A stretch of DNA of 64,000 nucleotides, from contig SVNX01000001.1 of the NCBI GenBank assembly GCA_015066665.1, positions 62,001-126,000 on the forward strand. The letters are read 5' to 3'. This stretch comes from Ruminococcus sp. Lineage in GTDB: Bacteria; Bacillota; Clostridia; Oscillospirales; Ruminococcaceae. Under the pieces are notes generated by a model that searched no databases, was not told the origin of the DNA, and was given only the letters and a program-made list of their open reading frames with translations. The translations under genes were made by a program, and so were the position numbers. Shown in pieces: positions 28,385 through 38,667 of this stretch. The stretch's first letter is position 1; each line of letters starts with the position of its first letter.

Positions 28385-30799
28385 TTAGCCCAGTACGATC
28401 ACGATCTCATTGCAGTCAGTCAGATCAGCTGCCTTGATATAGCCGCCGTCGAGCTGCTGGCCGTTGAGTGTGACGCTTGCAACACCGCTCTGTACATGGT
28501 TCGGGTTCTGTACATCGATGCACAGCTTCTTGCCGCGGAAGTTCTTCTTCATCTTGAAGCCATCCCATGCGGCAGGAATGGACGGAGAAATGGTGATGCC
28601 GTCGGCATCCGGACGAATGCCGCAGATACCCTCTGTGCAGCCTACCATTACGGTGGATGCAGTACCTGTCAGCCAGTGAACATGGGATCTGCCCTCGAAG
28701 GGAGATGCCTTGGACTCGGTGAACTGACCATGTACATAGGGTTCGAGCACACGGATCTCTGCCTTGTCATTCATGGCAGCCGGTGCGGATTCCATGAAGT
28801 ATTCAAATGCTCTGTCGCCGTGACCCAGGAGACCCTCTGCGAGGATCAGCCAGCCCTGGGACTGGGAGAAGATACCGCCGTTTTCCTTGGTATCGGCATT
28901 GAAAATATGCATCAGTGCGCCGTCGAAATAGTGCTCCTTGTAGGGCGGTTCGAGCAGCTTTGCACCATAGGGTGTGTTCAGGATCTCGTGAACGGAGTTC
29001 ATGGCCTTTTCAGCCTGCTCCTCACTTGCAAAGCGGGATACAACTGCCCAGCTCTGGGGGTTCAGCCACATATTGGCCTCGGGATCCTTCTTTGCACCAA
29101 CGATCACGCCGTCCTCACGGATGCCGCGGATGAATCTGTCCTCATCCCAGCACTTTTCGAGGGTTTCGCCAAGCTTTGCCTGTACTTCGTCAATATAGGC
29201 AACATACTCTGTATCGTTCTTGTCCTTTGCCATGTCACGGATGACGCTCATTGCATAGTACAGCTGGAATGCCACGAATGTGGATTCGCCCTTTGCACCC
29301 ATGCGCAGGCAGTCGTTCCAGTCAGCATGCAGACCGGCGGGCATATTGTTGGCACCGAGTCTCTCCATGGAGAAGCGGATCGCATTCTTCAGATGCTCAT
29401 AAACGGTAGCCTCGCCGCCGCCCTCTTCTGCATAGGTAATCACTTCATCGAGGAAGCCCTTGTTGCCGCTCTCGCCGATGTACTTAACAATAGTCGGGAA
29501 CAGCCACAGTGCATCGTCTGCACGATAGGACGGATGGCCGGTTTCCTTTGCATAAGCGCTGTTTTCGTTCTGCTCATCGGGGCAGTTCTCGTGGCCGGCA
29601 TTGTGATCGAACTTAACCAGAGGCAGGCCGCCGCCGTTGCTGACCTGAGCGGAGAGCATGAAGCGGATCTTTTCTGCTGCCATTTCGGGATCCAGATGGA
29701 TGATACCCTGGATATCCTGAACGGTATCTCTGTAGCCGTAGCCGTTACGCAGGCCGCAGTAAACGAAGGAGGCGGCTCTCGACCAGATGAAGGTGATGAA
29801 GCACTGGTAGGCATTCCACACGTTCATCATGTTGTTGAATTCCTCGGAGGGTGTCTCCACCTCGAAGTTGGAGAGCTTTTCATGCCAGTAGGACTTGAGG
29901 GCGCACAGCTCCTCATCCACCTTGCCGGGGGTCTCATAGGCAGCCAGAATTTCAGCGGATTCTGCGTCATTCTTCTGACCGAGCACATAGATGATCTCCT
30001 TGGTCTCGCCGGGCGCAAGTGTCAGCTCGGAACGCAGTGCAGCGCAGGCATTGGAGTTGAAGTTCATGGAATCATCGCACTTGCCCTCTTCCACCATGAT
30101 GGGGTTGGAGTAGGTTCTGTAGGCGCCGATGAACTTGTCCAGATTGCCGCAGCCGTCAACAACTTCTGCACCGGCCACACCGAAGAAACGCTCTCTGTGG
30201 TTGGAGCCGTCAGCCCACTTGCCGGAGTTTTCGTTGATGTGCTGGAGGATCTTGTTGCCCTTGCGCTCTGTGCGGGTGATGAACAGGGTGTACTGGAGGT
30301 TAACCTGATCCTGCTCATAGTTATTGTCGTTTGTGAATTCAATGAAACCGAATGCGGAAAGCTTTCTTTCCTTGGAATCATTGTTTGTCACCTTCATGCG
30401 CCATACTTCGTAGGTCTGACCTGCGGGCACATAGTAGGTGGTTTCGGTTGCGATCTTGGCATACTCGGAAGTCATGATGGAGTATGCGGTACCGTGGCGG
30501 CACTCGGACTTATAGGCGTCGAGGGGCTTGCCCACGGGCTGCCATGTAGCGGACCAGAAGTCGCCGTCCTCTGCATCACGCAGATAGATGTATCTGCCGG
30601 GCAGGGCCATCATGGAATTGAAGCGGAATCTTGCGATTCTGCCGTTGGCACCGGACTGCACGAAGCTGTAGCCGGCGGCGTTGTTGGATACGATGGCACC
30701 GTATGCGGGGGAACCCAGATAATTAACCCACGGTGCGGGGGTGTCGGGTCTTGTGATGACGTATTCCTTGTTTGCAAGGTCGAAATGGCCGTACTGCAT
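28385..30799 (-). CDS. GH94 disaccharide phosphorylase, cellobiose-type
   Basis: An 804-residue intracellular phosphorylase, close to the usual length of cellobiose phosphorylases (about 810). The N-terminus MQYGHFDLANKEYVITRPDT matches that family. The catalytic (alpha/alpha)6 barrel holds GYRDTVQDI, whose Asp is the expected general acid, and GLHADWNDCLRMG; VMVGCTEGICGIRP is near the C-terminus. Cellobiose plus phosphate gives glucose 1-phosphate and glucose, saving ATP. Characterised cellobiose phosphorylases, as I recall them, usually read RDSNQD, so chitobiose or another beta-glycoside remains possible. The start follows AAAGGAGAG; the ORF-track start 18 codons upstream is unlikely. Monocistronic. 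Confidence 0.88.
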   Translation of the reverse strand: MQYGHFDLANKEYVITRPDTPAPWVNYLGSPAYGAIVSNNAAGYSFVQSGANGRIARFRFNSMMALPGRYIYLRDAEDGDFWSATWQPVGKPLDAYKSECRHGTAYSIMTSEYAKIATETTYYVPAGQTYEVWRMKVTNNDSKERKLSAFGFIEFTNDNNYEQDQVNLQYTLFITRTERKGNKILQHINENSGKWADGSNHRERFFGVAGAEVVDGCGNLDKFIGAYRTYSNPIMVEEGKCDDSMNFNSNACAALRSELTLAPGETKEIIYVLGQKNDAESAEILAAYETPGKVDEELCALKSYWHEKLSNFEVETPSEEFNNMMNVWNAYQCFITFIWSRAASFVYCGLRNGYGYRDTVQDIQGIIHLDPEMAAEKIRFMLSAQVSNGGGLPLVKFDHNAGHENCPDEQNENSAYAKETGHPSYRADDALWLFPTIVKYIGESGNKGFLDEVITYAEEGGGEATVYEHLKNAIRFSMERLGANNMPAGLHADWNDCLRMGAKGESTFVAFQLYYAMSVIRDMAKDKNDTEYVAYIDEVQAKLGETLEKCWDEDRFIRGIREDGVIVGAKKDPEANMWLNPQSWAVVSRFASEEQAEKAMNSVHEILNTPYGAKLLEPPYKEHYFDGALMHIFNADTKENGGIFSQSQGWLILAEGLLGHGDRAFEYFMESAPAAMNDKAEIRVLEPYVHGQFTESKASPFEGRSHVHWLTGTASTVMVGCTEGICGIRPDADGITISPSIPAAWDGFKMKKNFRGKKLCIDVQNPNHVQSGVASVTLNGQQLDGGYIKAADLTDCNEIVIVLG

Positions 30800-30861
30800 A
30801 ATGGAACTCTCCTTTTTCGGGGATAAATTTTTGTCTTTGTGTAGTATATACACTCATAATC

Positions 30862-30890
30862 ATTGTATCATATCGTGACTTTTTTTGCAA
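30862..30890 (-). promoter_or_regulatory. Promoter of the GH94 gene
   Basis: On the minus strand TTGCAA and TACAAT are spaced by 17 bp, about 60 bp before the start codon. Confidence 0.7.
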
Positions 30891-30992
30891 GGGGTTTTGC
30901 GAATGTTTTTCAGAAAAATTCTGGAGTCACCCCCTCTGAACTGTCCGAGGGGCGGGGCGGAAATTTGACATTTTCCATAAAATGGTGTATAC

Positions 30993-31508
30993 ATGGTGCT
31001 GGATTACACCATGTCCGGTTTTTCCAAGGACGGCAATATGGAAAAGACCTTTGACGGCGAGTGGGATCTGACGGAGAAGCCCGAGGCGGGCGGCGGCCGG
31101 ACGATCGTGCAGGGGGATTACACGGTTACGAGACTGGATGACGAATATATCTGCATCCTGTTTGAGGGTGGTGCAGGCGGCCGTTCGGCGGTGCAGACGA
31201 TGAAGTTTGCCGAGGGACTGATTCTGGATGGCAGCACGATGGAGCGGTACACGCTCGGTGATCTGTACACGGTGGATGCGGGCTTCACTGCGGTTGTGGA
31301 GGCGGCTCTGACTGCGCATGGCGGCGAGAGCAAGCTCAAGGGCAGCGATCTGCAGACATCACTGGAGCACAGCGGAACGCGTGCCTATGGCATTGGTGCA
31401 TATCTGAGGCCCGAGGGGCTGGTGATTGTCCTGCCCGGCATGAGCATCCTTGAGGACTGGATCGAGCTGACACTTCCCTATGATGATGTGGCGGCATATC
31501 GGAAATAA
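30993..31508 (+). pseudogene. Probable N-terminally truncated DUF3298-like protein
   Basis: 171 codons without a ribosome site or signal peptide. The pattern TFDGEWDLTEKP, GLILDGSTMERYTLGDLYT and YLRPEGLVIVLPGM resembles the C-terminal half of DUF3298-type (RsiV-like) exported proteins, which normally start with a signal and a DUF4163-like part. A TTGACA-N17-TATACA promoter overlaps the first codon, so the first ATG could not be translated from it. I read this as a gene remnant; the family call is weak. Confidence 0.5.
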
Positions 31509-31737
31509 AAGATACTGCGAAGCAGCCTGAGGATTCCAAAGGGAATCATTCCCTTTGGCAGGGGGTATGGGGGACAGCGTCCCCCATGAATACTTAAGAA
31601 TACGAATAATAGTTAAATTCAGCCTAAAAGAATATTTTTCCTTTGGTCTTGATTTCTCCTTCCTCTGCGATGCGTGAGCGAGCAGACGCATACCCCTTTG
31701 CTCCATAAAAGAAAAGCCCCCCTTTTTCAACAAACTG
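31509..31737. other. Intergenic region with hairpin repeats, no gene
   Basis: Contains CCAAAGGGAA-TCA-TTCCCTTTGG and ATGGGGGAC-AGC-GTCCCCCAT hairpins (31535-31590), a small relative of the GC-rich elements, then AT-rich sequence. I find no supportable ORF. Confidence 0.7.
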
Positions 31738-31765
31738 AAAGCACACCGGAAAGGTGTGCTTTTTA
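31738..31765 (-). terminator. Terminator of the XRE regulator gene
   Basis: AAAGCACACC-GGAA-AGGTGTGCTTTTT; it overlaps the gene's stop codon. Confidence 0.85.
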
Positions 31766-32083
31766 TGTTGATTCAGTCCGATTCTGCCGGCGCATCAGGT
31801 CAATCAGCGCTGTGATGATTTCCTGCTGGTCTTTGCGGAGGTGGTGGAATGCCGTCATCATGCGTTTATCCTCGCCGGTCGTTTCCGGAGTATAGGAAAG
31901 CAGATCATCCACGGAGATATTGAACACCGCCGCAATCCGGACAAGTGTGGTGCAGTCCGGTTCATGCTTATTCCTGATATAGCCGTTGAGCGTGGTAGGG
32001 GCGATTTTCAGCCGTGCGGCAAGCTCCCGCTGGGACATGCTGCGCTCCTCCAGTAAATTCAGAATCACGTCTCCGATGTTCAT
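31763..32083 (-). CDS. XRE-family transcriptional regulator
   Basis: 106 residues. An N-terminal Cro/cI-type helix-turn-helix (SQRELAARLKIAPTTLNGYIRNKHEPD) is followed by a leucine-rich C-terminal helix that may dimerise (MTAFHHLRKDQQEIITALIDLM). The gene faces away from a membrane-protein gene across 136 bp of AT-rich DNA with inverted repeats, so it most likely represses itself and its neighbour. The start follows GAGGTGATAGT. Confidence 0.9.
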   Translation of the reverse strand: MNIGDVILNLLEERSMSQRELAARLKIAPTTLNGYIRNKHEPDCTTLVRIAAVFNISVDDLLSYTPETTGEDKRMMTAFHHLRKDQQEIITALIDLMRRQNRTEST

Positions 32084-32112
32084 ACTATCACCTCATCCCT
32101 ATTATAAGGCAA

Positions 32113-32138
32113 TATCGGATTTTATGCATAAAAATTCG
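32113..32138. promoter_or_regulatory. Candidate operator of the XRE regulator
   Basis: ATCGGATTTTATGCATAAAAATTCGG is a near-perfect dyad centred on ATGCAT. Related half sites TCGGATTTT and TTCGAATTTTCGG flank the -35 box and lie just after the -10 box of the divergent gene. Confidence 0.55.
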
Positions 32139-32157
32139 GAAAAATCGGATTTTCTTC

Positions 32158-32186
32158 TTGACAAATACGAGAATATGGTATATAAT
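32158..32186 (+). promoter_or_regulatory. Promoter of the membrane protein gene
   Basis: TTGACA and TATAAT with 17-bp spacing, 34 bp before the start codon. Confidence 0.88.
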
Positions 32187-32219
32187 TAGGATAAATTCGA
32201 ATTTTCGGGAGGTATTATT

Positions 32220-32828
32220 ATGGATTCGACTAAAAAACGAAGCGTACCGCTGATGGTGGTTTGTGTGCTGGGACTGCTGATGGTGCCGGGGGAACTTGTT
32301 CCCGTATTACTCGCTTATGTTTCTTTGACAGGAAATTTTCCATTCATTATGGTAAGTCTTGTCGCAGCGATTTCCTTTATTCTGCTGATGATAGATAAGA
32401 ATTCAAAATTCTGTGCAGTCGTTCCGCTGCTTTGCATACCGATCTATCTGGTGGATATAATAGATTTCATACGATATCTGGTGGATACAAAAGATATCAT
32501 ACATCAATTTCATTCTTACGATTTTTTTGACATTCTCTACTTCGGAGCAGTAATTTTCACATCTCTTTTTGCAGTGGCTTGTTTTATACTGTCGCTTTTG
32601 GGCTGTATAAAACCAAAGTTCTCCTGGATGGCACTGGCATCATCTGTAGCAGCAATCGCGTTGAATCTTATGTCTATCATATCAGCAATATATGTTGACC
32701 CTACATATATTGCTTTTTCCCAAATTATCCGTGTAATTTTCAGCGTGAATCACATTTTCTTCTTCTTCGGCATTGCCGTATTCCTGTACGGCCGCTGGAA
32801 GAGAAAACAGGGGGAGTTGTCAGTATAA
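32220..32828 (+). CDS. Small polytopic membrane protein, unknown function
   Basis: 202 residues with about six hydrophobic helices (for example VPLMVVCVLGLLMV, FIMVSLVAAISFILLMI, IFTSLFAVACFILSLLG, FFFFGIAVFLYG) and a basic C-terminus. No family recognised. Base composition is clearly more AT-rich than the surrounding genes, which suggests later acquisition together with the divergent XRE regulator. The start follows GGGAGGTATTATT. Confidence 0.75.
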   Translation: MDSTKKRSVPLMVVCVLGLLMVPGELVPVLLAYVSLTGNFPFIMVSLVAAISFILLMIDKNSKFCAVVPLLCIPIYLVDIIDFIRYLVDTKDIIHQFHSYDFFDILYFGAVIFTSLFAVACFILSLLGCIKPKFSWMALASSVAAIALNLMSIISAIYVDPTYIAFSQIIRVIFSVNHIFFFFGIAVFLYGRWKRKQGELSV

Positions 32829-32858
32829 TGCAAAAGCCACGGCAACAGCGATGTCCTC

Positions 32859-32887
32859 TTGACTTTTTATAAAAAATCGTGTATAAT
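32859..32887 (+). promoter_or_regulatory. Promoter of the antitoxin RNA
   Basis: TTGACT and TATAAT with exact 17-bp spacing. It points toward the toxin gene's 3' end with no ORF following. Confidence 0.85.
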
Positions 32888-32893
32888 ATAAAA

Positions 32894-32985
32894 AAGAGAG
32901 CATACCGATGACGGTCGCTCCCGAGTAAAACAGCTAAAGAATAACCGCCTAACTTTGGAACGTGGGGCGGTTATTTCTTTTTATC
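32894..32985 (+). ncRNA. Putative type I antitoxin RNA
   Basis: A short transcript predicted from the promoter at 32859-32887 to the terminator AATAACCGCC...GGCGGTTATT with TTTCTTTTT. Its last 45 or so bases are antisense to the 3' end and stop codon of the holin-like toxin gene on the other strand. Its 5' part (GAGCATACCGATGACGGTCGCTCCCG) resembles the toxin mRNA leader, with an ACCG-ATGA-CGGT hairpin. The layout matches convergent pairs such as txpA/ratA. Confidence 0.75.
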
Positions 32986-33075
32986 ATTGTGAAAAATCAT
33001 ATACAAAAGTGAAGTGAATCCGACAAGGAAAATGCCTGTCTGGATCAAATCTGACACTGTTATGTATTGTTCCAT
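32971..33075 (-). CDS. Holin-like type I toxin peptide
   Basis: A 34-residue peptide, MEQYITVSDLIQTGIFLVGF then TSLLYMIFHNDKKK: a polar start, one membrane helix and a Lys-rich end, as in putative holin-like or TxpA/Fst-type toxins that disturb the membrane. It has its own promoter and a ribosome site GGGAG that sits in a hairpin, CTCCC-GGAA-GGGAG, so translation is likely restrained. The stop codon lies in the shared terminator stem. It appears in the ORF track only as the end of a longer spurious frame. Confidence 0.8.
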   Translation of the reverse strand: MEQYITVSDLIQTGIFLVGFTSLLYMIFHNDKKK

Positions 33076-33136
33076 GATATCACTCCCTTCCGGGAGCAAG
33101 GAATGACCGCCACCGTTATGATATGCTCTTATGATT

Positions 33137-33165
33137 ATTATACAAATATCTACAGGGTTTGTCAA
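33137..33165 (-). promoter_or_regulatory. Promoter of the toxin mRNA
   Basis: On the minus strand TTGACA-N17-TATAAT, a consensus promoter about 60 bp upstream of the toxin ATG. Confidence 0.9.
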
Positions 33166-33232
33166 GAATTTCCCTGATTTTAGAGCGGAAAATAATCGAG
33201 GCGGACAGTCACATTGTCCGCCTCGTAATATT

Positions 33233-34582
33233 TTACACCAGAGAAGAAGTGATAAACACATCATATGTGCGGCGCACTGCCACATCATAGATGCAGCGGA
33301 TGGCCTGATGCAGATCGTGCTCGTTTACGCCGACAATGACGTTCAGCTCGCTGGAGCCCTGGTCGATCATCTTTACATTGATTCTTGCATGTGCCAGTGC
33401 TGCAAAGATACGGGCTGCTGTACCATGTGTGCGGCGCATGCCCTTACCGACGACTGCCAGCAGTGCAACCTCATGCTCGATCTCAACATGATCGGGATTC
33501 ACTGTCTTGCGCAGTGCCTCGAGGAGCTGGTCTTCCTTGCCCTTCAGACTGTCTGTGTCAACAATCACGCTCATGGTGTCAATGCCGGAAGGCATGTGCT
33601 CGAAGGAAATGCCAAGATCGGCAATGACATTCAGTACGTCACGGCAGAAGCCGATCTCGCTGTTCATCATGGACTTTTCAATATTGATCGCAGAGAAGCC
33701 CTTCTTGCCGGCAATACCGGTGATGGTGCGCTGGCTCTCTTCTGCGGAATCGTCCGGAATGATCATTGTGCCGGCATCCTCAGGACGGTTGGTGTTGCGG
33801 ATGTTGATCGGGATGCCTGCGGTTCTTACAGGGAAAATGGCATCCTCATGCAGTACGGATGCACCCATATAAGCCAGCTCACGCAGCTCCTTATAGGTGA
33901 TGACCGGAATTTCAAGGGGCTGGTCAACGATTCTCGGGTCAGCAACCAGCATGCCGGATACGTCCGTCCAGTTCTCATATACGGAAGCACGAACGGCTCT
34001 TGCCAGCAGAGAACCGGTCACGTCGGAACCGCCTCTGGAGAAAGTGCGGACAACACCGCTCACGGAACGGCCATAGAAACCGGGAATGACAGCACACTCT
34101 ACGCCTTCCAGACGCTCACGGAGCTTGGCAACGGTCTCGTGACGCATCATCATGCCCTCATCGTTGAAGACAATGACATCGGCAGCATCAACAAACTCAA
34201 AGCCCAGATATGCTGCAATGATGATGCCGTTGAGGAACTCGCCGCGGCTGGCAGCATATTCTCTGCCGGCAGTGGCCAGATTCTGTCTGATCTGCTCGAA
34301 CTGTGCTTCAAGAGAAACATCCACGCCAAGGTCAGCAATGATGCCGTTGTAACGATCCTTGATCATCTGGAAATCGGCTGTGAAATCCTCGCCCAGGCTT
34401 GCCTTTTCATAGCAGGCATAGAGCATGTCGGTCACCTTGATATCAGCATCAAAACGCTTGCCGGGTGCGGAGGGCACCATGAAGCGTCTCTCGGGATCTG
34501 CCTTTATGATTGCGGCTGCCTTCTTGATCTGGCCTGCATCTGCAAGGCTGCTGCCGCCGAACTTAACTACTTTAACACCCAT
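33233..34582 (-). CDS. Aspartate kinase
   Basis: The enzyme phosphorylates aspartate, the entry to lysine, threonine, methionine and diaminopimelate synthesis. The 449-residue protein has the N-terminal kinase motif VKFGGSSLADA, the substrate-binding FSRGGSDVTGSLLA, and two C-terminal ACT-type domains (SEIGFCRDVLNVI, ALLAVVGKGMRRTHGTAARI) for feedback by amino acids. The start is the ATG after GAAAGGAAACAGATT. It is a single gene with its own promoter; no lysine riboswitch fits in the short leader. Confidence 0.94.
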   Translation of the reverse strand: MGVKVVKFGGSSLADAGQIKKAAAIIKADPERRFMVPSAPGKRFDADIKVTDMLYACYEKASLGEDFTADFQMIKDRYNGIIADLGVDVSLEAQFEQIRQNLATAGREYAASRGEFLNGIIIAAYLGFEFVDAADVIVFNDEGMMMRHETVAKLRERLEGVECAVIPGFYGRSVSGVVRTFSRGGSDVTGSLLARAVRASVYENWTDVSGMLVADPRIVDQPLEIPVITYKELRELAYMGASVLHEDAIFPVRTAGIPINIRNTNRPEDAGTMIIPDDSAEESQRTITGIAGKKGFSAINIEKSMMNSEIGFCRDVLNVIADLGISFEHMPSGIDTMSVIVDTDSLKGKEDQLLEALRKTVNPDHVEIEHEVALLAVVGKGMRRTHGTAARIFAALAHARINVKMIDQGSSELNVIVGVNEHDLHQAIRCIYDVAVRRTYDVFITSSLV

Positions 34583-34662
34583 AATCTGTTTCCTTTCTGA
34601 ATCAACGGTGTTCCGCCGGTGTGCGGAACGCCTGTATTTATCGCTGTTTTTCCATGTTTTTA

Positions 34663-34690
34663 TTATATTCCATTTTATACAAAAAATCAA
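34663..34690 (-). promoter_or_regulatory. Promoter of the aspartate kinase gene
   Basis: On the minus strand TTGATT and TATAAT with 16-bp spacing, about 80 bp before the start codon. Confidence 0.7.
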
Positions 34691-34790
34691 TTGGGATTTG
34701 AGACAAATTTTTATCGCTCTCATTTGCTTTTTTGGTGAATACGACTGTTTTTCTGTGGCGTACAGGCTGAAGGGCAGGGCCGGATCAGGT

Positions 34791-34846
34791 TTAACCTGAA
34801 TTTAACGGCCGCATGCTGTCGGATTTTACAATCCGCAGGGTATAAT
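34791..34846 (+). promoter_or_regulatory. Pho-box-like promoter of Na/Pi transporter 1
   Basis: TTAACC-N5-TTAACG (34791-34807), then TTTTAC at +33 from the first hexamer and TATAAT at 34841-34846. No good -35 box lies at the right distance, which fits activation by a bound regulator. The same spacing recurs before transporter 2. Confidence 0.72.
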
Positions 34847-34884
34847 AGAAATGTAAACTACATCCGATGAAAGGACGTTTTCCC

Positions 34885-36654
34885 ATGGACAATATGATTC
34901 TGAGTGTCATTGTATTCGCCGGCGGTCTGGCATTTTTCCTGTACGGCATGCACGTTATGTCATCCAGCCTTGAGAAGATGGCGGGCGGCAAGCTTGAATC
35001 CATTCTCAAGAAGCTTACCTCCAACCGGTTCAAGGCGTTGGCAGTGGGTGCGGGCGTCACAGCGGTCATTCAGTCTTCCTCCGCTCTGACGGTCATGCTG
35101 GTGGGTCTTGTGAACAGCGGCATCATGTCCCTGACACAGAGCATCGGCGTGATTATGGGTTCCAATATCGGCACGACCATGACGGCATGGCTCCTCAGTC
35201 TGATGGACATCAGCGGCAGCAGCCTTGCGATGAAGCTGATGAAGCCCGACTACTTCTCCCTCGTGCTTGCCCTGATCGGTGCCTTCATGCTGATGCTGTG
35301 CAAGAGCGTGAAGAAAAAGGACATTGCCAACATCATGGTCGGCTTTGCTGTACTGATGTACGGCATGAAGATCATGGGCGATACAGTTGAGCCGCTTGCC
35401 GAAGTGCCCGAGTTCCAGAACCTGATGCTCGCATTCAAGAATCCCATCCTCGGTGTGATCGTGGGTGCGGTGGTCACCTGCATCATCCAGAGTTCCTCTG
35501 CTTCCGTCGGCATCCTGCAGACACTGGCAAGCCAGACCGGACAGGTCACAAACGGCATGGCCATCCCGATCATCATGGGACAGAATATCGGTACCTGCAT
35601 CACTGCGCTGATTTCCAGTATCGGTGTCAGCCGCAATGCCAAGAAGGTGGCCATTGTCCATGTTTCCTTCAACCTGATCGGCACCACCGTCCTGCTGACG
35701 CTGTATCTGATCCTGAATTCTATCTTCGTGTTTGCCTTCTCCGATCTGCCTGCCAATGCGACAAGCATTGCGGTCATCCACTCCGTATTCAACATCACAA
35801 CGACCGTGGTTCTGCTGCCGTTCACATGGCTGCTTGAGAAGATTGCAAACACCATTCTCCCTGACAAGACAGAAGAGCAGCCCATGAAGAAGGGCGTCAT
35901 GATCGACAAGAGACTGCTGGCGACCCCCTCTGTTGCAATCTCCGAGTGTCAGGAAGCCTCCGCACGCATGGCACAGCTGGCAAATACCACGCTGCTTGAT
36001 GCCATTTCCCTGATCACTGCCTATGACGAAGCCAAGGCGGATCAGATCCGGAAGAACGAGGATATGCTCGATAACTATGAGGATCTGATCGGCACCACAC
36101 TGGTGCAGGTGTCCTCCCAGGCACTGTCCGAGCATGACAGCCAGACGACCACTCGTGTGCTCCGTGCGATCGGCGACTTTGAGCGTCTTGGTGACCACGC
36201 ACTCAATATGGTCGATATTGCGAAGGAAATCCACGATAAGAAGATTCAGTTCACACCGGAAGCCCAGAAGGAGCTGTCCGTGCTCACCGATGCCCTGACC
36301 GAGATCCTGCACAACACCTTCACGGTCTATGACAATGCCGATGAAAAGGCTGCAGCGGATATCGAGCCTCTGGAGCAGGTAATCGATTACCTGACACGGG
36401 ACATCCGTGCCAACCACATCCAGCGTCTGCAAAAGGGCATGTGCTCGATTGAAACGGGCTTTGTGCTTGCCGATATGCTGACGAATTTCGAGCGCGTCTC
36501 CGACCACTGCTCCAACATTGCCGTGGCCATCATTGAGACCTCTCACAGCACATTCGATACACATAAGTATCTGAGCAAGGTGAAGTTCGGCAACAAGAAC
36601 TTCAACGAGCAGTTCGACCGCTATGCGGCACAGTATCAGCTGCCCCGTGCATGA
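34885..36654 (+). CDS. Na+/phosphate cotransporter with PhoU-like domain (1)
   Basis: A 589-residue NptA-type symporter. The membrane half has the two family QSSSA repeats (IQSSSALTVMLVGLVNSGIM and IQSSSASVGILQTLA), a sign of an inverted-repeat transport fold with re-entrant loops. The cytosolic half (about 340-589) is a PhoU-like helical domain (RAIGDFERLGDHALNMVDIA, FERVSDHCSNIAV). The ribosome site GAAAGGA lies inside the ORF-track start, so translation begins at the ATG at 34885. It takes up inorganic phosphate with sodium. The Pho-box-like promoter suggests induction on phosphate limitation. Confidence 0.92.
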   Translation: MDNMILSVIVFAGGLAFFLYGMHVMSSSLEKMAGGKLESILKKLTSNRFKALAVGAGVTAVIQSSSALTVMLVGLVNSGIMSLTQSIGVIMGSNIGTTMTAWLLSLMDISGSSLAMKLMKPDYFSLVLALIGAFMLMLCKSVKKKDIANIMVGFAVLMYGMKIMGDTVEPLAEVPEFQNLMLAFKNPILGVIVGAVVTCIIQSSSASVGILQTLASQTGQVTNGMAIPIIMGQNIGTCITALISSIGVSRNAKKVAIVHVSFNLIGTTVLLTLYLILNSIFVFAFSDLPANATSIAVIHSVFNITTTVVLLPFTWLLEKIANTILPDKTEEQPMKKGVMIDKRLLATPSVAISECQEASARMAQLANTTLLDAISLITAYDEAKADQIRKNEDMLDNYEDLIGTTLVQVSSQALSEHDSQTTTRVLRAIGDFERLGDHALNMVDIAKEIHDKKIQFTPEAQKELSVLTDALTEILHNTFTVYDNADEKAAADIEPLEQVIDYLTRDIRANHIQRLQKGMCSIETGFVLADMLTNFERVSDHCSNIAVAIIETSHSTFDTHKYLSKVKFGNKNFNEQFDRYAAQYQLPRA

Positions 36655-36903: not shown

Positions 36904-38667
36904 ATGAACGGAATCATCCTTGCGCTGATCAAGGTCGCCGGCGGTCTGGCCTTCTTCCTGTACGGCATGCATGTCATGTCCTCGGGTCTGGAGAAAATGG
37001 CGGGCGGCAAGCTTGAAATGGCACTCAAGAAAATGACATCCAACCCCTTCAAGAGTCTGGCACTGGGTGCGGGCATTACCGTTGCCATCCAGTCGTCCTC
37101 GGCCCTGACAGTCATGCTGGTTGGCCTTGTCAACAGCGGCATCATGCAGATCGGGCAGACGGTCGGCGTCATCATGGGCTCGAACATCGGTACGACCTTT
37201 ACGGCCTGGCTGCTCAGTCTGATGGATATCAGCGGCGACAGCCTGCTGTTGTCACTCATCAAGCCCGAGAACTTCTCGCTGGTGCTTGCGCTGATCGGTG
37301 CGTTTATGATTATGAGTGCCAAGAGCGTGCGGAAGCGTGATATTGGTGCCATCATGGTCGGCTTTGCGGTGCTCATGTACGGCATGAAGCTCATGGGCGA
37401 TGCCTGCAAGCCCCTTGCGGATGTGCCCGAGTTCCAGAATCTGCTCGTGGCGTTCAATAATCCCGTCTTCGGCGTGGTGATTGGTGCGTTGGTAACGGGT
37501 ATCATCCAGAGCTCGGCGGCGTCCGTCGGCATTCTGCAGACCCTTGCCATTCAGACCGGCCAGATTACATACGGCATGGCCATTCCGATCATCATGGGCC
37601 AGAACATCGGTACCTGCGTGACTGCGCTGATTTCCAGTTTCGGTGTCAGCCGCAACGCCAAGAAGGTGGCGGTCATCCACATTTCCTTCAACCTCATCGG
37701 TACAGTCGTTCTCCTGACGCTGTATCTGATTGCCGATGCTCTCTTCAAGTTTGCCTTCTCCGATCTTCCCGTCAATGCGGCAGGCATTGCCGTGGTGCAC
37801 TCCATTTTCAACGTGGCAACGACCGTTCTGCTGCTGCCGTTCGGCAAGCTGCTGGTGAAGATTGCAAACACCGTTCTGCCGGATAAGGGCGAGGAGCCTG
37901 TAAAGAAGAAGAGCGTCATGATCGACGAGCGTCTGCTTGCCACACCTTCTGTGGCGATTGCGGAGTGTCAGGCTGCTTCCACAGAGATGGCAAAGCTTGC
38001 AAGAGAAACCCTGCTGACCAGTATCGATCTGATCGGCAACTATAATGAAGAAACCGCACAGCTGATCCTGAAGAACGAGGACAAGCTCGATGATTACGAG
38101 GACAAGCTGGGCACAAGTCTGGTACAGATTTCGGCCCAGGCACTGTCCGAGCACAACAGCCAGATGGCGTCCCGTATTCTGCGTGCGATCGGCGATTTCG
38201 AGAGACTGGGTGACCATGCGGTCAATCTGGTCAGCATTGCCGAGGAGATCCACACAAAGAAGATCCAGTTCACCCCTGAGGCCAACAAGGAAATCAGCGT
38301 GCTGACGGGTGCACTCAAGGAGATTCTGGAGAATATGTGTACCGTTTATGAGAGCTGTGACGAATCCGCCGCAGCGGACATTGAGCCGCTTGAGCAGGTC
38401 ATTGACTGCCTGACCAAGGAAATCAAGGCGAACCATGTCAGCCGTCTGCAGAAGGGTCTGTGCACGATCGAGACCGGTTTTGTGCTGATGGATCTGCTGA
38501 CGAACTATGAGCGTGTTTCCGACCACTGCTCGAACATTGCGGTATCGGTCATTGAGACATCGCACAGCACATTTGAGACGCATAAGTATCTGAGCAAGGT
38601 GAAGTTCGGCAACAAGAACTTCAATGACAACTTCGAGAAATTCTCGGAGAAGTACAGTCTTACATGA
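36904..38667 (+). CDS. Na+/phosphate cotransporter with PhoU-like domain (2)
   Basis: A 587-residue paralogue of the preceding gene, with the same QSSSALTVMLVGLVNSGIM and QSSAASVGILQTLA repeats and the same PhoU-like C-terminal domain ending in FETHKYLSKVKFGNKNFN. The two proteins align end to end and look like a tandem duplication. Each copy keeps a separate promoter and terminator, so they can be tuned independently. The start follows AAAGGAGCAGAATT. Confidence 0.92.
   Translation: MNGIILALIKVAGGLAFFLYGMHVMSSGLEKMAGGKLEMALKKMTSNPFKSLALGAGITVAIQSSSALTVMLVGLVNSGIMQIGQTVGVIMGSNIGTTFTAWLLSLMDISGDSLLLSLIKPENFSLVLALIGAFMIMSAKSVRKRDIGAIMVGFAVLMYGMKLMGDACKPLADVPEFQNLLVAFNNPVFGVVIGALVTGIIQSSAASVGILQTLAIQTGQITYGMAIPIIMGQNIGTCVTALISSFGVSRNAKKVAVIHISFNLIGTVVLLTLYLIADALFKFAFSDLPVNAAGIAVVHSIFNVATTVLLLPFGKLLVKIANTVLPDKGEEPVKKKSVMIDERLLATPSVAIAECQAASTEMAKLARETLLTSIDLIGNYNEETAQLILKNEDKLDDYEDKLGTSLVQISAQALSEHNSQMASRILRAIGDFERLGDHAVNLVSIAEEIHTKKIQFTPEANKEISVLTGALKEILENMCTVYESCDESAAADIEPLEQVIDCLTKEIKANHVSRLQKGLCTIETGFVLMDLLTNYERVSDHCSNIAVSVIETSHSTFETHKYLSKVKFGNKNFNDNFEKFSEKYSLT

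What the first reader, a model, noticed from the sequence alone, without database searches (positions are those of the whole stretch)
32859..33165. Convergent type I toxin-antitoxin locus
A 34-residue peptide with one membrane helix and a Lys-rich tail has a consensus promoter, and its ribosome site lies in a CTCCC-GGAA-GGGAG hairpin. A second consensus promoter 200 bp away faces it and gives a short RNA that shares the terminator and overlaps the toxin 3' end by about 45 bases. The two RNAs also have similar 5' leaders (inverted relative to each other), which may allow loop contacts. The pieces fit the txpA/ratA or Fst design, but it has no ORF-track entry of its own.
Basis: partly seen in the sequence, partly recalled or inferred. 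Interest (0 to 1): 0.7.

Follow-up and report, generated by a model that had tools for sequence, protein, structure and literature searches.

The report
Type I toxin-antitoxin gene pair
A tiny membrane-peptide gene and a facing antisense RNA gene, which share one terminator, form a probable toxin-antitoxin pair of a kind found in many gut Clostridia, where the two RNAs carry matching 5' ends that change together.

Summary
A 34-codon ORF (33075-32971, minus strand) and a short plus-strand RNA are driven by facing near-perfect sigma-70 promoters, the only such facing pair within 400 bp in the 64 kb. They share a bidirectional terminator that begins at the toxin stop codon, and the Shine-Dalgarno sequence sits in a hairpin. 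The genome is Ruminococcus-like. I found 120 related records in Clostridia and a few beyond. The peptide is under purifying selection (pN/pS 0.08-0.47). The antisense promoter is conserved: 11-12 of 12 consensus bases in 71 of 109 loci, against 0.3% of shuffles. No Rfam family matches. Relatives link the peptide to the Hol_Tox/PepG1 type I toxins, though the window peptide itself scores below every cut-off. Type I toxin-antitoxin is therefore well supported by comparison; toxicity and transcription are untested. The layout is Fst-like, but the toxin lacks the Fst PxxxG motif. Within a locus the two RNA leaders match far better than between loci (own partner ranks first in 24 of 28), while the promoters barely do. 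Direct contact of the leaders with each other or with the ribosome site is only weakly supported family-wide. Verdict: a new variant of a known kind.

The parts
32971..33075 (-). Toxin ORF, 34 codons plus stop
   Evidence: Sequence; homologues in many genomes; purifying selection in relatives
33137..33165 (-). Toxin promoter TTGACA-17-TATAAT
   Evidence: 12/12 consensus
32859..32887 (+). Antitoxin RNA promoter TTGACT-17-TATAAT
   Evidence: 11/12 consensus; conserved in relatives
32936..33130 (-). Predicted toxin mRNA, about 195 nt
   Evidence: Ends inferred from promoter and terminator; fold z -3.86
32894..32982 (+). Predicted antitoxin RNA, about 90 nt
   Evidence: Ends inferred from promoter and terminator; fold z -3.47 (folded to 32985)
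33083..33096 (-). Hairpin that closes the Shine-Dalgarno sequence (CUCCC-GGAA-GGGAG)
   Evidence: Minimum-energy fold; Shine-Dalgarno pairing is common in relatives
32940..32975 (.). Shared bidirectional terminator; the toxin stop codon TAA (32973-32971) lies in its arm and the Lys codons before it read as the U-run of the antitoxin RNA
   Evidence: Inverted repeat; sequence
32898..32920 (+). 5' hairpin of the antitoxin RNA (GAGC..ACCG-AUGA-CGGU.GCUC)
   Evidence: antitoxin 5' parts of 71 relatives fold with mean z -2.04
32936..32949 (+). Direct repeat copy 1, AAAGAATAACCGCC, in the antitoxin terminator arm
33098..33111 (-). Direct repeat copy 2; reads GGCGGUCAUUCCUU in the mRNA leader, complementary to copy 1 in 12 of 14 bases
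32880..32904 (+). Inverted copy of promoter end and 5' leader, antitoxin side
   Evidence: pairs I1 and I3
33122..33144 (-). Inverted copy of promoter end and 5' leader, toxin side
   Evidence: pairs I1 and I3

Best explanation
A chromosomal type I toxin-antitoxin module. The minus-strand mRNA encodes a small membrane peptide, predicted to harm the cell's own membrane when overproduced. The plus-strand RNA of about 90 nt is the antitoxin: it is antisense to the last 47 or so nt of the mRNA through the shared terminator. Inferred steps: the mRNA is made with its ribosome site closed in a local hairpin; the antitoxin RNA meets it at the complementary terminator loops; pairing spreads over the overlap, possibly with a second contact at the leader (mRNA GGCGGUCAUUCC with the antitoxin terminator arm, then the Shine-Dalgarno region); this blocks translation and/or offers a duplex to RNase III. 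Supported here by comparison: coding ORF, facing promoters, shared terminator, closed ribosome site, matched leaders. Not shown: transcripts, toxicity, the order of contacts, any RNase step.
For: Same parts in the same order in about 100 loci. Antisense promoter 11-12/12 in 71 of 109 loci against 0.3% of shuffles, usually 77-107 nt past the stop codon. ORF under purifying selection, pN/pS 0.15, 0.47 and 0.08 in three groups. Hydrophobic segment and at least two K/R in the last five residues in 62 of 63 diverse peptides. Relatives match Hol_Tox (20 of 44, best 2.7e-9) and PepG1 (5 of 44, best 5.4e-7). Both window RNAs fold better than shuffles. Antitoxin complementarity to the mRNA leader in the window z -3.25. 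Up to nine copies in a genome, tandem copies, patchy presence and copies in viral contigs fit a toxin-antitoxin module.
Against: No transcript or toxicity data. The window peptide alone has no Pfam hit and only sub-threshold NCBIfam hits. Antitoxin-to-leader complementarity is weak across the family (mean z -0.54) and not partner-specific.
Confidence: 0.86

Rival explanations
1. The peptide is a benign small membrane protein (stress, signalling or competence-type peptide) whose level is set by an antisense RNA; the module is antisense-regulated but not a toxin-antitoxin pair.
For: Toxicity is untested; six relatives match the ComI model better than chance (best 6e-6).
Against: Family matches to Hol_Tox and PepG1; multiple and tandem copies, patchy presence and phage carriage are unusual for a housekeeping peptide.
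Confidence: 0.1
2. The peptide is a phage holin or a lysis remnant, and the facing promoter is incidental.
For: Weak PHROG holin match (E 0.07); family name 'holin-like'; some copies lie in viral contigs.
Against: The window neighbours are metabolic genes, not phage genes (GH94, aspartokinase, Na/Pi transporters). The facing promoter is conserved far beyond chance.
Confidence: 0.03
3. Chance: a random short ORF between two random promoters and a terminator of the neighbouring genes.
For: The nearest genomes lack the module beside lysC, so it is not a fixed feature of this site.
Against: Relatives at unrelated sites keep every part; purifying selection on the ORF; only facing promoter pair of this quality in 64 kb.
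Confidence: 0.01

Closest known systems
Hol_Tox (Pfam PF16935, putative holin-like toxin) and PepG1 (NCBIfam NF041589, a type I toxin)
   Same: Peptide of about 30 aa, one membrane helix, Lys-rich end. 20 of 44 relatives match Hol_Tox and 5 of 44 match PepG1; the family profile matches PDB chain 7ns1, a 31-aa peptide, at 5e-5.
   Different: The window peptide is below all cut-offs by itself. Those models describe the peptide only, not this antisense gene, terminator and leader arrangement.
Fst / par of plasmid pAD1 (described in PMC7472228)
   Same: Facing promoters, one bidirectional terminator shared by both RNAs, Shine-Dalgarno in a hairpin, a direct repeat giving a second stretch of complementarity, a possible U-turn in a terminator loop.
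   Different: The toxin has no proline, so no PxxxG motif. The repeat here is one element, and one copy is the terminator arm itself. The two 5' leaders are alike (inverted in the DNA) instead of complementary. The U-turn-like motif is in the antitoxin loop.
txpA/RatA of B. subtilis (PMC3531473)
   Same: Facing genes, antisense overlap at the 3' ends, small membrane toxin, complementary terminator loops as likely start of pairing.
   Different: txpA and RatA overlap by about 120 nt; here about 47 nt through a single shared terminator. Whether RNase III acts here is unknown.
C. difficile type I modules such as CD2517.1-RCd8 (PMC6563280)
   Same: Facing overlapping genes, small toxins with hydrophobic start and Lys-rich end, often on prophages.
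   Different: Described as lacking sequence homology to known type I toxins. I did not compare those sequences directly.

Membership tests
Type I toxin-antitoxin (general) | Small hydrophobic peptide gene | tested here: met
   One membrane segment, KD mean 1.86; purifying selection in relatives
Type I toxin-antitoxin (general) | Antisense RNA gene with its own promoter | tested here: met
   By sequence and comparison: in the window, 71 of 109 relatives with 11-12/12 promoters. The RNA itself was not observed.
Type I toxin-antitoxin (general) | Peptide is toxic and the RNA relieves it | not testable with these tools
   Needs expression tests in laboratory strains
Hol_Tox (PF16935) | Score above the curated cut-off of 23.3 bits | tested here: not met
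   Window peptide: no hit. Relatives: one at 23.8 bits and 20 of 44 at E up to 0.01. So the family is linked to Hol_Tox; the window peptide is not filed as a member.
PepG1 (NF041589) | Score above the curated cut-off of 70 bits | tested here: not met
   Window peptide 13 bits; five relatives match weakly, best 5.4e-7
Fst / par | Facing promoters and one bidirectional terminator | tested here: met
Fst / par | Intramolecular hairpin closing the Shine-Dalgarno sequence | tested here: met
   in relatives (median pairing 0.82 against 0.68 for shuffled upstream sequence)
Fst / par | Direct repeats DRa/DRb that make the RNAs complementary at the translation start | tested here: inconclusive
   One 14-nt direct repeat, upstream of the Shine-Dalgarno hairpin, not at the start codon; pairing not partner-specific across the family
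Fst / par | PxxxG(C) motif in the toxin | tested here: not met
   The window peptide contains no proline
txpA/RatA | 3' overlap with RNase III-dependent decay of the toxin mRNA | not testable with these tools
   Overlap present (about 47 nt); decay needs experiments
Rfam families (all 4227) | Covariance-model match | tested here: not met
   None in 30000-36000 at E up to 1; none in ten relatives at gathering score

The most novel reading that the evidence does not exclude
In this family the toxin mRNA and its antitoxin RNA begin with matched 5' hairpins whose sequences change together from locus to locus, while the promoters that drive them barely match. Because the sequences are alike rather than complementary, recognition would rest on stem exchange between twin hairpins or on a shared binding partner, a principle different from the complementary repeats of Fst.
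Probability: 0.3. Interest if true: 0.65.

Novelty: new variant of a known kind. Interest (0 to 1): 0.5.

Why it matters
The 'putative holin-like toxins' of gut Clostridia and their phages are usually annotated as lone peptides. The comparison shows that this branch of them comes with a conserved antisense RNA gene, so both parts can be annotated and tested together. The co-changing leaders raise a direct question: how do many similar copies in one genome (up to nine, some in tandem) keep to their own partner, or do they share?

Tried and rejected
Antitoxin 5' part as a direct anti-Shine-Dalgarno: no better than shuffles across 86 loci (mean z -0.2) and not partner-specific. Leader with terminator arm as a partner-specific contact: not supported (p 0.38). 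Covariation of leader base 6 with the stop codon as proof of a 5'-3' lock in the mRNA: mostly a single clade split. RNAalifold consensus of the antitoxin hairpin: none found, because the arms were misaligned; single-sequence folds used instead. Leader likeness as gene conversion of the whole promoter region: disfavoured, since promoter spacers share 33% against 31% identity (p 0.16; local score 4.7 against 4.1, p 0.01), far less than the leaders. Plasmid collection: no match. Second copy in the own genome, which is about 77% complete: none by protein or DNA pattern.

Full report
Observation. The ORF 33075-32971 (-) encodes MEQYITVSDLIQTGIFLVGFTSLLYMIFHNDKKK. Its promoter (33165-33137) is a perfect sigma-70 consensus; the facing promoter (32859-32887) has 11 of 12 bases. 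The 64 kb hold seven sites this good and only this one facing pair within 400 bp. The two RNAs share a terminator at 32940-32975 and overlap by about 47 nt (ends inferred). The mRNA and the antisense RNA fold better than shuffles (z -3.86 and -3.47). The Shine-Dalgarno sequence is in the CUCCC-GGAA-GGGAG hairpin.

Compact anatomy (read directly from the sequence). On the toxin strand the stop codon TAA runs straight into the terminator (TAA-CCGCC). The Lys codons before it (AAA AAG AAA) read, on the other strand, as the U-run that ends the antisense RNA. One stretch of about 40 bases thus codes the peptide tail, stops translation and terminates both RNAs.

Relatives. Searches gave homologues in 10 of 100 relatives, the window's own genome included, 27 of 394 genomes of the order, 11 of 391 of the class and 6 of 399 of the phylum, four of them outside the class; the latter keep the same layout. 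Named ones include Ruminococcus MAGs, Lachnospiraceae, Enterocloster bolteae, Petralouisia muris and Anaeromassilibacillus. Nine places were found in viral contigs and one in an unannotated gut phage record. One complete genome has nine copies, five of them 331-344 bp apart. Within the genus five of 37 other genomes have a copy, and the four genomes with the most similar lysC lack the module beside it. The distribution is patchy.

The peptide is real. Three groups of relatives give pN/pS of 0.15, 0.47 and 0.08, and 62 of 63 non-redundant peptides have at least two K/R in the last five residues. Relatives match Hol_Tox (20 of 44, best 2.7e-9) and PepG1 (5 of 44, best 5.4e-7); the family profile matches PDB chain 7ns1, 31 aa, at 5e-5. 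The window peptide alone reaches none of the cut-offs.

The antisense gene is real as a conserved sequence feature. In 109 loci with enough flank, the best sigma-70 match on the antisense strand downstream has 11-12 of 12 bases in 71 (65%), against 0.3% of dinucleotide shuffles, usually 77-107 nt past the stop codon. The mRNA promoter is as good in 25 of 109. Some loci are near relatives of each other, so the 109 are not independent, but they span several families of bacteria. No Rfam family matches.

RNA features across the family. CCGCC follows the stop codon in most records. In 68 diverse loci its last two bases are CC in 66, while the opposite terminator arm offers GG in only 15. The mRNA leader has GGCGG in 59 of 71 loci (15% expected from shuffles), whereas the antitoxin leader has GG before its CGG[TC] core in only 2 of 66. 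So CCGCC seems kept for more than its own hairpin, and pairing with the leader GGCGG is the obvious candidate. Many of the changes in the opposite arm still leave G-U pairs in the antitoxin terminator, so this is suggestive only. Antitoxin terminator loops are enriched in UUGG- or UUUGC-like motifs (41 of 68 against 11.4 expected), compatible with a U-turn used for loop contact; in Fst the motif lies in the toxin RNA (PMC7472228).

Matched leaders. The mRNA leader and the antitoxin leader of one locus resemble each other: mean local score 14.0 against 7.2 for mismatched pairs; own partner ranks first in 24 of 28 non-redundant loci; none of 20,000 permutations reached it. Promoter spacers hardly share this (33% against 31% identity, p 0.16; local score 4.7 against 4.1, p 0.01), so the likeness is concentrated in the transcribed part. 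The antitoxin leader folds as a hairpin (mean z -2.04). Predicted duplexes of true leader pairs are slightly better than mismatched ones (-21.2 against -19.9 kcal/mol, p 0.015). The reason for the likeness is open: stem exchange, a shared partner, or both.

Second contact. In the window, the direct repeat 32936-32949 / 33098-33111 makes the antitoxin terminator arm complementary to the mRNA leader, and in line with it the antitoxin 5' part can pair with the Shine-Dalgarno region (naive duplex -40.9 kcal/mol; z -3.25 against shuffles). Family-wide this is weak (mean z -0.54), so I keep it as an inference for this locus.

Mechanism. I commit to a type I module (0.86): peptide made only when the antisense RNA is low; antisense RNA binds by loop contact at the terminator and then spreads, blocking translation and/or inviting RNase III, as shown for txpA/RatA (PMC3531473). 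Toxicity, transcripts and RNase steps are inferred.

Place among known systems. It works like Fst/par in layout but fails the Fst toxin motif, and its repeat and leaders differ. It works like txpA/RatA in its 3' overlap, but with one shared terminator. The peptide family belongs to the broader Hol_Tox/PepG1 group by linkage through relatives. In seven text searches I found no paper describing this antisense gene or the matched leaders; the library holds open-licence papers only, so absence is weak evidence.

Noticed in passing
G167 contig C1, 291064-292498 (locus L101): Five copies of the module in tandem, 331-344 bp apart, in a complete genome that has nine copies in all.
   Followed up: partly
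L153 (viral contig); L159-L163: Here the stop codon is separate from the terminator, or the terminator has other flanks, yet an A-rich stretch still precedes the arm. The link of stop codon and terminator is therefore common but not obligatory.
   Followed up: partly
L006 (G005 contig C163): Two toxin genes face away from each other about 100 bp apart in a short contig; may be a rearrangement or an assembly fault.
   Followed up: no
L003, L013, L040: Leaders of these loci carry an extra hairpin of about 40-50 nt between the 5' end and GGCGG.
   Followed up: no
window 31763-32083 (-) and 32220-32828 (+): A helix-turn-helix regulator (HTH_3) and a 202-aa protein without Pfam match, rich in hydrophobic stretches, lie divergently next to the module; neither is found beside lysC in 29 same-genus lysC loci.
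   Followed up: partly
window 34867-36654 and 36904-38667 (+): Two neighbouring Na+/Pi cotransporter-PhoU fusion genes, apparently a tandem duplication.
   Followed up: no
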